From assembly GCA_004292515.1 (NCBI GenBank), contig RDXB01000067.1, positions 1 to 57,705 of the forward strand: DNA of 57,705 nucleotides. Direction: 5' to 3'. The DNA comes from Oscillatoriales cyanobacterium (GTDB lineage: Bacteria; Cyanobacteriota; Cyanobacteriia; CACIAM-69d). Shown piece by piece: positions 52,537-57,705 of this stretch (its first letter is position 1; the number at the start of each line of letters is the position of its first letter). The position numbers and the translations under genes are program-made. The notes under the pieces are model-generated. The model was not told where the DNA came from, made no database searches, and saw only the letters and a list, made by a program, of their open reading frames with translations.

Positions 52537-53213
52537 CTAATTGGCCCCTCAGCAAATGGCTCTATCTACTGGCTGGCTTGGCGCTCTACGTGAAGATGGT
52601 GGTGTTGCCAACCCTGGCTCCAGAGGTGTCGGGCGCGGCGATCGTGGCAGCCGTCACCAGCGATAGCGGCGTGCCCAATGCAGTGTCGGGCATTATTTTT
52701 CGCAACCGGCTCTACGACACGATCTTTGAAGTGGTGGTGTTTACGATCGCGATTATGGGGTCGAAATTCCTGCTAGCCACGGAGCAGCCTTCCTGCTCGA
52801 TCGAACGGCTGACCGATCGCCCCTCGATCGTCCTGGCCCGGTTGGGCGCAACGATCGCGGCCTTGGTGGCGATCGAACTCGGGATTCGCGGCCACCTGAG
52901 TCCCGGCGGCGGCTTTGCGGCCGGCGTGGCGGGCGGCACGGCGATCGGCTTGGTGGCCGTATCCGCTTCTCCCGACTGGATGCAAGCCCTCTATCAACGT
53001 TGGCAAGCCGCCACCTGGGAAAAAATCTCGGTGTTGGTGTTTATTCTGCTGGCAGCGCTGATGCTGATGGGCTACGAATTGCCCCACGGTGAAATGGGCA
53101 ATTTGATCAGCGGCGGTTGGTTGCCAATCCTCAATTTCTTGGTGGCGGTGAAAGTGGCCCTCGGTTCTTGGGCCGCCGTGTTGATTTTCATTCGTTACCG
53201 CGGCCTGTTTTAG
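52533..53213 (+). CDS. mrpB: Mrp antiporter subunit B
   Basis: 226 aa. An N-terminal part with YDTIFEVVVFTIAIMGSKFLL resembles the MbhE-type segment, followed by the MnhB domain: ELGIRGHLSPGGGFAAGVAGGTAIGLV (the GHLSPGGGFxxG motif is diagnostic), then ISVLVFILLAALMLMGYELPHGEMGNLISGGWLPILNFLVAVKVALG. Membrane protein of the plasma or thylakoid membrane. Last gene of the operon; ATGA overlap with the DUF4040 gene. It ends 140 bp before the converging pentapeptide gene. Confidence 0.9.
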   Translation: MTNWPLSKWLYLLAGLALYVKMVVLPTLAPEVSGAAIVAAVTSDSGVPNAVSGIIFRNRLYDTIFEVVVFTIAIMGSKFLLATEQPSCSIERLTDRPSIVLARLGATIAALVAIELGIRGHLSPGGGFAAGVAGGTAIGLVAVSASPDWMQALYQRWQAATWEKISVLVFILLAALMLMGYELPHGEMGNLISGGWLPILNFLVAVKVALGSWAAVLIFIRYRGLF

Positions 53214-53325
53214 CGGTGGGAATGGTGGGGGAGCGGTGTTAGTTAAAGCCCATGCAACACCGCTCGCCCCGTCAGATCCAAGCAGTTGGACGATCGCAAA
53301 CCAACAGGTCGATCACGGTGGCATG

Positions 53326-53361
53326 GTGGGACTACTGGTGGGACTACTGGTGGGACTACTG
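53326..53361 (+). repeat. Three 12-bp tandem repeats covering a stop codon
   Basis: GTGGGACTACTG three times exactly. On the minus strand the TAG stop of the pentapeptide gene (53356-53358) lies within the first unit read. Confidence 0.92.
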
Positions 53362-54465
53362 CGCCCAGCCGATCGCCCCGGACAAATCCGCCCCGCGCGT
53401 CACGGTTCCATCGAGGGTCGCCCCGACGAAGTTGGTGTTGTTGGTGAGGATGCCTCGCAAGTCTGCCTCGGCCAGATAGGCGCGATCGAAGTTGGCATTC
53501 AGCAGGTTAGCGCCCTGCAAAATCGCGCCGCCCATTTTGGACTGGCGCAAATTCGTGCTAATCAGCTTGGCTTGCCGAAACACCGCCAGACTGAGGGCCG
53601 ATCGCTGCAAATTGGCCTGGGTCAAATCCGCGCCGGTGAAATCCGCGCCGGTGGCCACAGCGCTGACCAAGCGGGTTTCGATCGCCCGCGCGCCCATTAA
53701 CTTGGCACTGCTGAGGTTTGCCTCTTCCAAGTTGGTTTGGCGCAAACCCGCCTGCACCAAAATCGCGTTGGCAAAATTAGCCTGAAAACCATCGGCCCCG
53801 CCGAGCTTGGCTTGGGTCAGGTTCGCGCCCTCAAAGTTCGCACCCACCAAGGACGTACCCAGGAACGTCGCGCCTACGGGGGTCGATCGCCCCAACTTGG
53901 TCGATCGCAGGTTCGATTCTGAAAAATCTGCCCCATCGAGTTGGGCAAAGCGCAGGTCAGCCCCTTGCAGGTTCGCCGCCCGCATCCGAGCCGCCGCCAA
54001 CAAACTTTGCACAAAACTCGCGCGCTGGGCCGTGGAGCCATTAAAGTTCGCTTCCCGCAGCCGTGCCTTGTCCAGCACTGCTTCCGTGAGAATCGCGCGC
54101 TGGAATTGGGCCCCGCGCAGCTTGGCTTCGATCAGGGTTGCCCCACTGAGGTTGGCCCGCTTGAACTGGGTGGCGCGCCCCGCAATCCCATCCAATCTTG
54201 CGCCGGTCAGGTTCGCTGCGGTCAGGTTTGCTTGATCGAGGTTGGCGCGGCTGAGATCCACCCCTTGCAGATCCAAGCCCGTCAAATCTGCCCCCGACAG
54301 GTCACAACCCACACAGGCGCGGGTGGTCTGTAACTGGGCGATCGCAGTGGCCGAGCCATTGGCCTGACTCGGGGTGGCCGCAGCCAGGGGCCGAGCGCCC
54401 GGCCCAGCCACCGTCACCGCAACGGCCAAGGCGGTCGCGTTACTTGCCGCCGTAATAAAACGCAA
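53356..54465 (-). CDS. Secreted pentapeptide-repeat protein
   Basis: 369 aa. N-terminal hydrophobic segment (ITAASNATALAVAVTVAGPG) followed by ARPLAAA looks like a signal peptide. About residues 50-360 are nearly continuous A(D/N)LXX repeats (GADLTGLDLQGVDLSRANLD...), enough for roughly 15 beta-helix coils. Cys50 and Cys53 (ACVGCDL) precede the repeats. The start is a TTG at 54465 with AAGGAG eight bases upstream, inside the end of the DUF4090-like gene; the 26-bp overlap implies translational coupling. No ATG gives a comparable start. Function unknown. The stop falls in a 12-bp tandem repeat. Confidence 0.88.
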   Translation of the reverse strand: MRFITAASNATALAVAVTVAGPGARPLAAATPSQANGSATAIAQLQTTRACVGCDLSGADLTGLDLQGVDLSRANLDQANLTAANLTGARLDGIAGRATQFKRANLSGATLIEAKLRGAQFQRAILTEAVLDKARLREANFNGSTAQRASFVQSLLAAARMRAANLQGADLRFAQLDGADFSESNLRSTKLGRSTPVGATFLGTSLVGANFEGANLTQAKLGGADGFQANFANAILVQAGLRQTNLEEANLSSAKLMGARAIETRLVSAVATGADFTGADLTQANLQRSALSLAVFRQAKLISTNLRQSKMGGAILQGANLLNANFDRAYLAEADLRGILTNNTNFVGATLDGTVTRGADLSGAIGWAQ

Positions 54466-54721
54466 TTTCCTTCTCCTTGAGCGGGGTCAAGTCGGCATCC
54501 AACAACATTTGATCCAGTTCGGCTTGGGCAAAATGCTTCACCCCAATCCGCACAATCCGCGATCGCATGGTGTTGGTCACGCCGCTGCGTTGGCGCTGAC
54601 CTTCAATGGCCATCACCTTGCGATACAGCTCCAGACGCGCAGGCGGAATCGGCGTTCCATCAAAATCAATGCCCTGCTCGATCGCCACATCGATCGCGTC
54701 GGCTCCGGTCGTTTGCGACAT
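54440..54721 (-). CDS. Small conserved cyanobacterial protein (probably DUF4090)
   Basis: 93 aa, ATG at 54721. Highly conserved-looking core IDVAIEQGIDFDGTPIPPARLELYRKVM followed by RSGVTNTMRSRIVRIGVKHFAQAELDQMLLDA, ending KEKEIAFYYGGK. I associate this with a ~90-aa cyanobacterial family, probably DUF4090, without known function. No signal peptide or membrane helix, so cytosolic. It is upstream of, and overlaps, the pentapeptide gene by 26 bp. Confidence 0.88.
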   Translation of the reverse strand: MSQTTGADAIDVAIEQGIDFDGTPIPPARLELYRKVMAIEGQRQRSGVTNTMRSRIVRIGVKHFAQAELDQMLLDADLTPLKEKEIAFYYGGK

Positions 54722-54900
54722 ACACTAAAACCTGAAATCAATAATAAATAGACTGCACAAGTCAAACCCTGAACAAGTCGTTGATCGCACTGGGTCGGCG
54801 CTTGCCCTAATCTACCACCGGCCGCGCCATCCCCCGATCGCTCAACCCCAAATCCTTCCCGCCCACTCCCCGATCGCCAAAACAATCGCCAAAACTGCCC

Positions 54901-55098
54901 ATGACTCCTCCTTATCTGCGTCCGGCTCCCTGGTGGAATTGGTTAGGGGCGATCGCCCTGCTCACGGCAACCCTCTGGCTGCTAAGGGGATTGGGTATTT
55001 TGGGCTTTTTGCCTGGGATCGTGTTTGGCGTGCTGTTTGGGGCGATGATCGTCCTAGCGTTGTTGGGCGTATGGGGCGTGCGATCGCGCCGTTGGTGA
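54901..55098 (+). CDS. Small two-helix membrane protein, unknown
   Basis: 65 aa with two hydrophobic segments (NWLGAIALLTATLWLLRGLG and FLPGIVFGVLFGAMIVLALLG) separated by a Gly-rich turn and a basic C terminus (RSRRW). ATG at 54901 preceded by weak purine sequence. Coding appears plausible from codon use; no family recognised. Confidence 0.6.
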   Translation: MTPPYLRPAPWWNWLGAIALLTATLWLLRGLGILGFLPGIVFGVLFGAMIVLALLGVWGVRSRRW

Positions 55099-55216: not shown

Positions 55217-57118
55217 ATGAACTACCGTTTCTTGAGCGAGCTATCTGCATTAGGTATATTCACTACTTCTGTACCAGCTTTAGTTGCACCTGTAGCAAAT
55301 GCAGCCGGCCTATCAACAGCAGAAATCGCCCAAAAGGCGATCGCGACCACTGTACAAATCAACAACCCGGCAGGTGGCGGGGGATCCGGTGTCATCATTG
55401 GGAAAAACGGCAATGAGTACACTGTTTTGACAGCAAACCATGTCATTGACAGTGCTGGTGCTCAGTATGTAGTCGTGACTCCTGATGGCAATACGCACAC
55501 AATCACCAGAGTTCAAAGCTTTCAGCAATCTGCAAACTCGCCAGACTTGGCATTAGTTTCTTTTGAGAGTACATCAGGCTACTCAGTCGCAATCTTAGGC
55601 AATTCAGAGCAAGCCAGCACTGGCGCAGACATATACGTCTCAGGATTCCCAGCTCCAGGCTTAGGAGTCACAGAACGTAATCATGAATTTACCAATGGCA
55701 TCATCACTAGCCGACCGACTGATCGGCCTCAAGGCTACACCATGCGCTACAACGCTGTAACCCGCATGGGCATGAGTGGTGGGCCAGTATTTGATGCAGC
55801 TGGTTTGGTCATTGGTATTCATGGACAAGGCGATACAGCCGGCAATGTGGAAAGTTCCAACCGGACTTCTGTTGCCATTAAAACAGGGTTTAATGCCGCG
55901 ATTCCGATTGCAACATTCCTGAATACAGCAACTTCAGCTGGTGTAAACTCCAGTTCTTTCAAGGTCGATACCAAAACCCTAATCCAGAACTTATATTCAG
56001 CATCTAACCCAGTCACTGCGCGTGATTTTTACGTTCGCGGTTTAACGCGCTATGAAAAACGCGAGTGGGCAGAGGCAGAGAAAGATTTCAATCAGGCAAT
56101 CACACTCGATCCCGACTTTGTAGATGCATATGCAAAGCGCTCTGAGAGTCGCTTATCTCAAGTGTTCACGATGAACCTTCGCAATGAAGCAAAGGGTGAT
56201 GACGTGGAAGTTGTTAAATCTGTAATTGCTGACCTTGATCGGGTGATCGCTCTGGATCCCAACAACTATTCACTGTATGTGACTAGAGGATGGGCTCATA
56301 GTCTAATGCGTAAGCAACGCGAGCTAGCTATTCAGGATTACAATCGAGCCCTTGAGCTGGCTCCAGAAGATTCAGAAGTCTATGGAGCTCGCTGCTCAGG
56401 GTATCTGCTGTCCAAGAAATACCGTGAGGCTTTTGAGGACTGCAATAAGGCTATCAAGATGGGTATTGAAGCTAAGTACACGCTTGCAACTGCCTACAAT
56501 AATCGTGCAGTTGCTCGCAGTCGCTTGGGTGATACAGCCGGGAGCATTTTTGATCTCACTAAGGCAATTGAAATTGCGCCTGATGTACCAAGCTTCTACG
56601 CTAATCGAGGCGCTTACAGACATAACATGGGAGATAAAGCAGGGGCACAAGCCGATTTCGCTCGAGGAGCCAGCCTTGCCTTAGAGCAGGGTGATACAGA
56701 AACTTACGATGCAATTCGTCGTGCAGCCAGTACATTGAGTATTCTGTCCGATTGCTATATCGCTACGGCAATACTGACTGGTGATGGCTCCGAAGCACAA
56801 CTTAATTTACTCCGGGGATGGCGTGATAGTGTCCTACTGAAAACCAGTATTGGTCAGGCTTTAGTAGCCCATTACAGGAATGTTGGGCCGCTTGTTGCAC
56901 TCAATTTACCTGATCACCCGACTATGTCAGCAATTCTGGTGAAGAGCTTTATCTTACCCGCTGTAAACCTCATCCAAACTCGCCAGAAATTCCCACAGCT
57001 TGACAAACTGCTTGATCCACTGATTTACAGTTTTTTTCTCAGTGTTCTAACGACTGGAACCATCTTGCATCATATCTTCCGTCGATTTGGCGTAACCACA
57101 GCTACTGAGCTTTTCTAG
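55217..57118 (+). CDS. Trypsin-like serine protease - TPR - CFI-box protein
   Basis: 633 aa from the ATG at 55217; the frame extends to a TTG at 55157, but the signal peptide begins at this ATG (MNYRFLSELSALGIF, cleavage after ANA). Residues about 45-240 are a trypsin-like domain: His in TANHVID, Asp in SPDLALVSF, Ser in MGMSGGPVF. Residues about 270-500 hold four to five TPRs (FYVRGLTRYEKREWAEAEKDF; YNRALELAPEDSEVYGARCS). From about residue 510 the sequence SDCYIATAILTG, LLRGWRDSVLLKTSIGQALV and HYRNVGP match the CFI-box-type C-terminal domain, ending in a hydrophobic stretch (IYSFFLSVLTTGTILH). Visibly lower GC and almost HIP1-free versus its neighbours. A COP23 gene converges on it. Confidence 0.9.
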   Translation: MNYRFLSELSALGIFTTSVPALVAPVANAAGLSTAEIAQKAIATTVQINNPAGGGGSGVIIGKNGNEYTVLTANHVIDSAGAQYVVVTPDGNTHTITRVQSFQQSANSPDLALVSFESTSGYSVAILGNSEQASTGADIYVSGFPAPGLGVTERNHEFTNGIITSRPTDRPQGYTMRYNAVTRMGMSGGPVFDAAGLVIGIHGQGDTAGNVESSNRTSVAIKTGFNAAIPIATFLNTATSAGVNSSSFKVDTKTLIQNLYSASNPVTARDFYVRGLTRYEKREWAEAEKDFNQAITLDPDFVDAYAKRSESRLSQVFTMNLRNEAKGDDVEVVKSVIADLDRVIALDPNNYSLYVTRGWAHSLMRKQRELAIQDYNRALELAPEDSEVYGARCSGYLLSKKYREAFEDCNKAIKMGIEAKYTLATAYNNRAVARSRLGDTAGSIFDLTKAIEIAPDVPSFYANRGAYRHNMGDKAGAQADFARGASLALEQGDTETYDAIRRAASTLSILSDCYIATAILTGDGSEAQLNLLRGWRDSVLLKTSIGQALVAHYRNVGPLVALNLPDHPTMSAILVKSFILPAVNLIQTRQKFPQLDKLLDPLIYSFFLSVLTTGTILHHIFRRFGVTTATELF

Positions 57119-57126
57119 GACTTACC

Positions 57127-57215
57127 AGGCTCGGGTTCATCAAATTACCCAAGCCTGATGTTGTTGAGAAGATAGATCTCTGGATCTGCCTTTTTTCTGT
57201 ATTGAAAAAAGGCAG
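57127..57215. terminator. Two hairpins between convergent protease and COP23 genes
   Basis: CAGGCTCGGGT / ACCCAAGCCTG (57127-57157, one mismatch) and a perfect CTGCCTTTTTT / AAAAAAGGCAG (57186-57215, 8-bp loop). They lie in the 121-bp gap between the converging genes, so transcription in both directions probably ends here. Neither is a textbook stem plus U tract. Confidence 0.5.
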
Positions 57216-57239
57216 TTGTATAGTCTACTTCAAAGCAAT

Positions 57240-57705
57240 TTACTCAACCCGCCGTAAAAACTCTTGCAGGTCAAAGTAGGTGACGATTCGACTATTAGTA
57301 TTAGCCGTGTTGCTGGGTTGCGAGTAACTCTCATAAAGAGGCTGGGAAACAGCACTGCTACCAATTGGACGTAGTGCCTGCAGGCGTGCCGCAGCATGTT
57401 GTGCTAAGGACTCCCGTGAATTGGGCTGATAGCGCAGCGTGAACACAAGCCCATCGCAAGCAGTCGCACTCAAATCACGAACCGTGCAGATGACCGGGGT
57501 GTTATTCATATAACCGGCAGCTAGGTAGATCAGTTGACCGCGACTGTAGTAGGTTTGCAAGCGCGCTGAGACTTCCTGGCAGCGGCGCTCGGGAGTCCAG
57601 CCGGCCCCTTCAAACTGGCGCGATCGCCACACAATTACAGGAAATTGACCGCGCTTGGTGACAGCGATCGTGGCGGGATGACCCTCGGCACTGCCACAGA
57701 CAAAT
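57240..57705 (-). CDS. COP23 domain protein (5' end beyond window)
   Basis: The frame is open to the window edge: on the minus strand it reads FVCGSAEGHPATIAVTKRGQ, then FPVIVW, before RSRQFEGAGWTPERRCQEVS. Together with RLQTYYSRGQLIYLAAGYMN, NTPVICTV and CDGLVFTLR this is the COP23 (circadian oscillating protein 23) domain, a cyanobacterial secreted domain with conserved Cys and PVI.W, F..AG.TP..RC..VS motifs. The GTG at 57632 is internal. A Ser-rich C-terminal tail follows. COP23 genes, as I recall, often lie beside trypsin-like proteases, as here. Function unknown. Confidence 0.88.
   Translation of the reverse strand, partial: FVCGSAEGHPATIAVTKRGQFPVIVWRSRQFEGAGWTPERRCQEVSARLQTYYSRGQLIYLAAGYMNNTPVICTVRDLSATACDGLVFTLRYQPNSRESLAQHAAARLQALRPIGSSAVSQPLYESYSQPSNTANTNSRIVTYFDLQEFLRRVE

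What the first reader, a model, noticed from the sequence alone, without database searches (positions are those of the whole stretch)
55217..57705. Protease-TPR-CFI-box protein facing a COP23 gene: possible secreted two-component module
A secreted trypsin-like protease with intact His/Asp/Ser, TPRs and a CFI-box C terminus converges with a COP23 gene. Both are exported-type proteins of unknown role, and the protease gene is noticeably poorer in GC and HIP1 sites than the surrounding genes, suggesting separate acquisition. The CFI-box end may anchor or sort the protease, and COP23 could be its substrate or inhibitor.
Basis: partly seen in the sequence, partly recalled or inferred. Interest (0 to 1): 0.6.

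Follow-up and report, generated by a model that had tools for sequence, protein, structure and literature searches.

The report
Rearranged COP23–protease gene pair
The window ends in a secreted protease gene facing a COP23 gene, and this proves to be an unusual, turned-around copy of a gene set (COP23 followed by one or two trypsin-like proteases) that recurs across many cyanobacteria, which gives the named but functionless COP23 family a likely role as a dedicated partner of exported proteases.

Summary
55217-57118(+) encodes an exported trypsin-like protease (H75/D110/S187), TPRs and a C-terminal CFI-box above NCBIfam's cut-off. 57240-57704(-) is a COP23 gene whose 5' end is lost at the contig end. 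The protease is a composition outlier (GC 47%, lowest GC3 of 38 ORFs); its HIP1 poverty is unremarkable.

In cyanobacteria COP23 is typically the first gene of a one-strand cassette COP23 -> TrypA -> TrypB(TPR). Of 98 COP23 genes, 57 have a trypsin within 1 kb downstream on the same strand (about 0.1 expected); an overlapping named set gives 69 of 98. COP23 and its neighbour protease co-diverge as pairs, even against within-genome swaps. In Arthrospira the three consecutive genes change expression together. The window protease falls in the TrypB clade; the window COP23 is sister to this genome's other copy that keeps a trypsin behind it. So the window holds a rearranged copy, convergent on a hairpin, without TrypA. 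The CFI-box is unique to this copy (1 of 252 protease ORFs).

Unexpected lead: 39% of cassette COP23s and some exported neighbours end in [LVAI]W-COOH. What COP23 does to the protease is not shown.

The parts
55217..57118 (+). Exported trypsin-like protease with TPRs and CFI-box C terminus (633 aa, stop included); a clade-B ('TrypB') protease of the COP23 cassette
   Evidence: Pfam/NCBIfam hits; tree placement with second trypsins of COP23 cassettes, SH-aLRT 97; best full-length relatives lie in COP23-COP23-TrypA-TrypB operons
55217..55303 (+). Probable Sec signal peptide (29 aa, ends ...PVANA)
   Evidence: Sequence inspection; most hydrophobic stretch of the protein is residues 9-27; not tested with a predictor
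55382..55819 (+). Trypsin_2 domain, residues 56-201; catalytic H75, D110, S187
   Evidence: Pfam PF13365 E 5e-24; triad by alignment to 243 relatives, 240 of 244 in all with H-D-S
56024..56668 (+). TPR region, about residues 270-484
   Evidence: Pfam TPR_1 and others
56753..56938 (+). CFI_box_CTERM domain, residues 513-574 (CYIATA...)
   Evidence: NCBIfam NF041770, 47.4 bits in the protein scan and 52 in the genome scan, cut-off 40; not in any other protease of the survey
56939..57115 (+). C-terminal tail after the CFI-box, with hydrophobic stretches at residues 568-586 and 598-617
   Evidence: Hydropathy
57186..57215 (.). 12-bp perfect inverted repeat (CTGCCTTTTTTC-6-GAAAAAAGGCAG) between the two convergent stops, probably a two-way terminator
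   Evidence: Intergenic strand folds at -48.5 kcal/mol, z -6.6; the simple terminator scan did not list it
57240..57704 (-). COP23 gene, 154 codons, 5' end cut by the contig end
   Evidence: Pfam PF14218 E 5e-31; sister of the genome's own C95 copy, SH-aLRT 99

Best explanation
The pair is a rearranged copy of a conserved cyanobacterial export cassette. The usual cassette is COP23 (small, exported, four cysteines), then a short trypsin-like protease (TrypA), then a trypsin-like protease with TPRs (TrypB), all on one strand and probably one transcript. Here COP23 and a TrypB-type protease have been brought end to end, TrypA is missing, and the protease carries an unusual CFI-box end. A second COP23 with a TrypA-type protease behind it sits at C95 of the same genome. 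Most likely mechanism: COP23 is made first, is exported, and binds its own protease as a dedicated partner (inhibitor, chaperone or adaptor) that holds or directs its activity outside the cytoplasm. Shown: the conserved order, co-divergence of the pair, co-regulation in one organism, intact triads, clade of the window protease. Inferred: export (signal peptides by eye), one transcript, binding, and that COP23 regulates rather than feeds the protease.
For: 57 of 98 COP23 genes have a trypsin within 1 kb downstream on the same strand and 8 more within 3 kb, against about 0.1 expected from 2.1 trypsins per Mb; by the tree labels this spans 14 GTDB families. In an overlapping named set from genome contigs 79 of 98 (69 within 1 kb). 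Some cassettes lie on plasmids. Trees: window protease in clade B with four cassette proteases (97) and window COP23 beside the C95 copy (99). Best full-length relatives of the protease lie in COP23-COP23-TrypA-TrypB operons with overlapping stop and start regions. COP23 and adjacent trypsin distances correlate, r 0.55 against a within-genome-swap null of 0.17, maximum 0.41 in 5000. In Arthrospira, consecutive GDL46_RS07465 (COP23), RS07460 and RS07455 (serine proteases) are three of only 21 differentially expressed genes, all about log2 -2 (PMC13114239). 240 of 244 proteases keep H-D-S.
Against: No binding or activity data. Co-divergence and synteny show inheritance as a unit, not contact. 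The read-through COP23+TrypA model reached only pTM 0.68 with no usable interface. COP23 has no recognised fold. In the window the two genes cannot share a promoter, and TrypA is absent, so this copy may be decaying or re-purposed. About a quarter of the first-set COP23s, among them a whole clade of 13 (about 260-300 aa), have no trypsin nearby.
Confidence: 0.6

Rival explanations
1. COP23 is the substrate: the co-encoded proteases process COP23 outside the cell, for example trimming a tail or releasing it on a daily cycle.
For: Same conservation and co-expression as above; COP23 tails are long, low-complexity and predicted disordered, as cleavable tails would be (residues 113-136 under pLDDT 50).
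Against: Two different proteases per COP23 and pairwise co-divergence fit a binding partner at least as well; the core domain with four conserved cysteines looks compact.
Confidence: 0.2
2. The window pair is two unrelated genes: a foreign TPR-protease landed by chance next to a COP23 gene, and has no link to it.
For: Composition of the protease is far from its surroundings while COP23 is only mildly low; synteny around it is broken in both genus-mates; convergent, separate transcripts with a hairpin between.
Against: A random COP23 has about a 1% chance of any trypsin domain within 1.5 kb either side at about 2 per Mb, and this one belongs to the very protease clade that sits in COP23 cassettes.
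Confidence: 0.15
3. The CFI-box end is the point: it tethers the protease to the cell envelope and COP23 is incidental.
For: CFI-box is a real domain hit at the C terminus and is followed by two hydrophobic stretches.
Against: No other COP23-cassette protease has it (1 of 252), and no other CFI-box locus of the cyanobacterial sample held COP23, so it cannot explain the conserved pairing.
Confidence: 0.05

Closest known systems
COP23 family (Pfam PF14218; circadian oscillating protein of Synechococcus RF-1, Chen et al. 1996, cited in PMC6315102 and PMC11131595)
   Same: Same domain, small and exported-type, four conserved cysteines
   Different: Described in the held papers only as a membrane protein with strong daily expression and unknown function; link to proteases not mentioned in the papers held
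Protease with co-encoded dedicated inhibitor, such as staphopain-staphostatin or SpeB-Spi (from general knowledge)
   Same: Small partner gene and secreted protease gene side by side on one strand, presumed pairwise specificity
   Different: There the inhibitor stays inside the cell and follows the protease gene; COP23 is exported and comes first, and inhibition is not shown
HtrA/Deg (S1C) proteases
   Same: Trypsin-like domain with weak similarity (TIGR02037 E 1e-10, below its cut-off)
   Different: No PDZ domain; TPRs and a CFI-box instead
C-terminal tryptophan of McdB, which mediates its interaction with carboxysomes (PMC11321042, title and abstract only)
   Same: A C-terminal Trp as a recognition element in cyanobacteria
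   Different: McdB positions carboxysomes inside the cell; the tails seen here are on exported-type proteins

Membership tests
COP23 (PF14218) | Match above gathering score | tested here: met
   107.6 bits against 27
COP23 (PF14218) | Exported (signal peptide) | not testable with these tools
   The 5' end lies beyond the contig end; the C95 sister copy starts MNQRLLSLAALTIAAAGAVASSATASE
CFI_box_CTERM (NF041770) | Domain at the C terminus above cut-off | tested here: met
   47.4 bits against 40, residues 513-574 of 633
Trypsin-like peptidase (PF13365) | Domain match and intact His-Asp-Ser | tested here: met
   86 bits; H75, D110, S187
HtrA/Deg (S1C) | PDZ domain after the protease domain | tested here: not met
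   No PDZ match at E 1 or better
COP23 -> TrypA -> TrypB cassette (defined here) | COP23 of the trypsin-linked clades | tested here: met
   Groups with the C95 copy inside the mostly linked part of the tree
COP23 -> TrypA -> TrypB cassette (defined here) | Protease of clade B with TPRs next to COP23 | tested here: met
   distance about 1.4 kb between domains
COP23 -> TrypA -> TrypB cassette (defined here) | All genes on one strand, COP23 first | tested here: not met
   Convergent
COP23 -> TrypA -> TrypB cassette (defined here) | TrypA directly after COP23 | tested here: not met
   Only 121 bp lie between the two stops; a clade-A protease follows the other COP23 at C95
Co-encoded protease-inhibitor pair | Partner binds and inhibits the protease | not testable with these tools
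   Read-through model pTM 0.68, inconclusive

The most novel reading that the evidence does not exclude
COP23 cassettes are the core of an undescribed exported protease network in cyanobacteria whose members carry a shared C-terminal recognition tail, a Pro/Ser/Asn-rich linker ending in [L/V/A/I]-Trp-COOH, found on COP23, TrypA, TrypB and on neighbouring papain-type, DUF4344 metallopeptidase, CAP and kinase genes. The window copy has lost that tail on both genes and carries a CFI-box in its place on the protease.
Probability: 0.3. Interest if true: 0.8.

Novelty: new variant of a known kind. Interest (0 to 1): 0.58.

Why it matters
COP23 has been known since 1996 for its strong daily rhythm, is among the most rhythmic or most expressed genes in some cyanobacteria and endosymbionts (PMC6315102, PMC11131595), and has no known function. 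A conserved, co-regulated gene neighbourhood with active-looking exported proteases turns that into a testable proposal. The shared C-terminal Trp tail, if real, would be a new kind of recognition signal for exported cyanobacterial proteins. The window copy itself is an odd variant and of less general interest than the cassette it led to.

Tried and rejected
Alignment A1 was too diverse for a scan; the tighter A2 worked. COP23 fold: AlphaFold2 model of the window domain (pLDDT 76.6, pTM 0.72) gave no Foldseek match under E 0.5 and only VIA Z under 4 (T4 sliding clamp, Ascaris pepsin inhibitor-3 at 2.9); too weak to use. No solved structure by sequence for COP23. Read-through COP23+TrypA chain (stop of COP23 in L054 read as Gly) to see whether the two domains are placed together: pTM 0.68, in between, no coordinates to inspect. 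Synteny with genus-mates: the three blocks upstream of the protease lie on different contigs in both relatives, so no clean empty site could be read. HIP1 poverty as a sign of acquisition: not unusual for this window. CFI-box as part of the module: rejected. Defence-system library: protease hits are generic trypsin matches. A regular-expression triad check was misleading and replaced by an alignment. Papers: no text on CFI-box; only one held paper has both COP23 and serine protease.

Full report
What is there. The window is the whole of contig C6 of its genome. Its last 2.5 kb hold a 633-aa protease gene on the + strand (55217-57118) and, facing it, a COP23 gene on the - strand (57240 to the contig end). 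The protease has a likely signal peptide (by eye), a Trypsin_2 domain with His75, Asp110 and Ser187, TPRs, and a CFI_box_CTERM match above its cut-off, followed by hydrophobic stretches. The COP23 domain is nearly complete; its start lies beyond the contig. Between the stops is a 12-bp perfect inverted repeat (57186-57215); the intergenic strand folds far better than shuffles (z -6.6). The C95 copies of COP23 and protease have native composition.

Is the pairing chance? I took 98 COP23 genes with about 6 kb on each side, mostly the best-scoring ones in 84 COP23-bearing genomes out of 244 sampled, and searched all ORFs with a trypsin profile built from this protease. 57 have a trypsin domain within 1 kb downstream on the same strand, 8 more within 3 kb, 4 upstream on the same strand. 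At about 2.1 trypsins per Mb in such genomes about 0.1 such cases are expected. The commonest layouts are COP>T>T>, COP>T> and T>COP>T>. A second set of 79 named loci, found by COP23 sequence alone, gave 79 of 98 (69 within 1 kb). The second set was seeded with linked COP23s and shares some genomes with the first, so it is a replication in wider species, not an independent estimate of the rate. Cassettes also occur on plasmids of Stanieria and Nostoc.

Which proteases? In the tree of trypsin domains the neighbours fall mainly into a proximal short clade (A) and a distal clade, often with TPRs (B), with a third group upstream of COP23 in some species. The window protease is in clade B with four cassette proteases (SH-aLRT 97). 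Its best full-length relatives, at 37-41% identity, are the second proteases of COP23-COP23-TrypA-TrypB operons in which the protease frames abut or overlap. The window COP23 is sister (99) to the one at C95, which is followed by a clade-A protease. Two genus-mates lack the protease and have only the third kind of COP23. So this genome holds the cassette in two pieces, each with its own COP23, and the window piece is turned. It is the only convergent pair in the first set; the second set has four, in Hormoscilla and a Microcoleaceae genome, the one inspected in Hormoscilla with a Uma2-like gene between.

Do they belong together? Distances among COP23s and among their neighbour trypsins correlate (91 non-redundant pairs r 0.48; 69 pairs r 0.55). 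When trypsins are swapped only among pairs of the same genome, which keeps species kinship, the null has mean 0.17 and maximum 0.41 in 5000. The pairs are thus inherited as units. Independent expression evidence: in an Arthrospira platensis RNA-seq study with 21 differentially expressed genes, three are the consecutive tags GDL46_RS07465 (COP23), RS07460 and RS07455 (serine proteases), all at about log2 -2 (PMC13114239). The authors do not comment on their being neighbours in the passages I read.

How does it work? 240 of 244 aligned proteases keep His-Asp-Ser, so the units look active. COP23 is small, has four nearly invariant cysteines and a compact predicted core with a disordered tail, and matches no known fold. 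I take binding of the neighbour protease as most likely, with COP23 as a regulator or carrier, and substrate as the main rival. A read-through chain of COP23 and TrypA predicted as one protein gave pTM 0.68, which neither supports nor refutes an interface. These steps are inference.

The CFI-box. It occurs in 8 of 244 cyanobacterial genomes. No COP23 was found in the seven other loci, and it is absent from all 251 other trypsin ORFs (motif search). A search with the tail alone found only two weak matches in 386 genomes. It is a private addition to this protease.

An unexpected feature. 57 of 146 distinct linked COP23s end in Trp, usually preceded by L, V, A or I and a Pro/Ser/Asn-rich linker; at 60% identity 16 of 42 clusters have it. 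Proteases have it less often, and almost only where COP23 has it (19 against 1, Fisher p 3e-7). Other genes in these loci have it too: papain-type, DUF4344 metallopeptidase, CAP and TPR proteins, and Ser/Thr kinases. In 603 genes from random stretches of two genomes only 1 of 187 with similarly polar tails ends in Trp, and that one lacks the motif. I found this while looking at the data, so it needs a fresh test. The window pair lacks it; the C95 COP23 ends in AGTSAW.

Verdict. Observation confirmed; interpretation partly supported. The window copy is a rearranged, probably acquired variant; the real finding is the widespread COP23-protease cassette, for which I found no description in the papers held.

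Noticed in passing
L050, L051, L055, L057, L240, L225, L216, L065 and others: Shared C-terminal tail: Pro/Ser/Asn-rich linker then [LVAI]W-COOH on cassette COP23s, some proteases, and neighbouring exported proteins.
   Followed up: partly
L053 6527-7960, L084 6847-8499, L116 10731-12227; plasmids L333, L334: Ser/Thr kinases, some with PsbP-like or DcrB-like C-terminal domains, lie close to COP23 cassettes in 42 of 132 loci (31 per Mb); solo COP23 loci have 21 per Mb, so the enrichment over a proper background is unproven.
   Followed up: partly
L218 5347-6492: Natural fusion of a fasciclin domain with COP23 in a Microcoleaceae genome, beside a convergent trypsin-like gene that lacks the catalytic His by alignment.
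   Followed up: no
L106, L109, L110, L117, L122, L125-L127, L143-L146, L149: A separate clade of longer COP23 proteins (about 260-300 aa, SH-aLRT 100) never has a trypsin nearby.
   Followed up: no
window 52554-55096: Three blocks upstream of the protease that are adjacent here lie on different contigs in both genus-mates, so this end of the contig is a patchwork.
   Followed up: partly
window 53356-54465 (-): 369-aa pentapeptide-repeat-like protein (A(D/N)LxxA repeats) with an exported-type N terminus, next to the finding; seen in the ORF list only.
   Followed up: no
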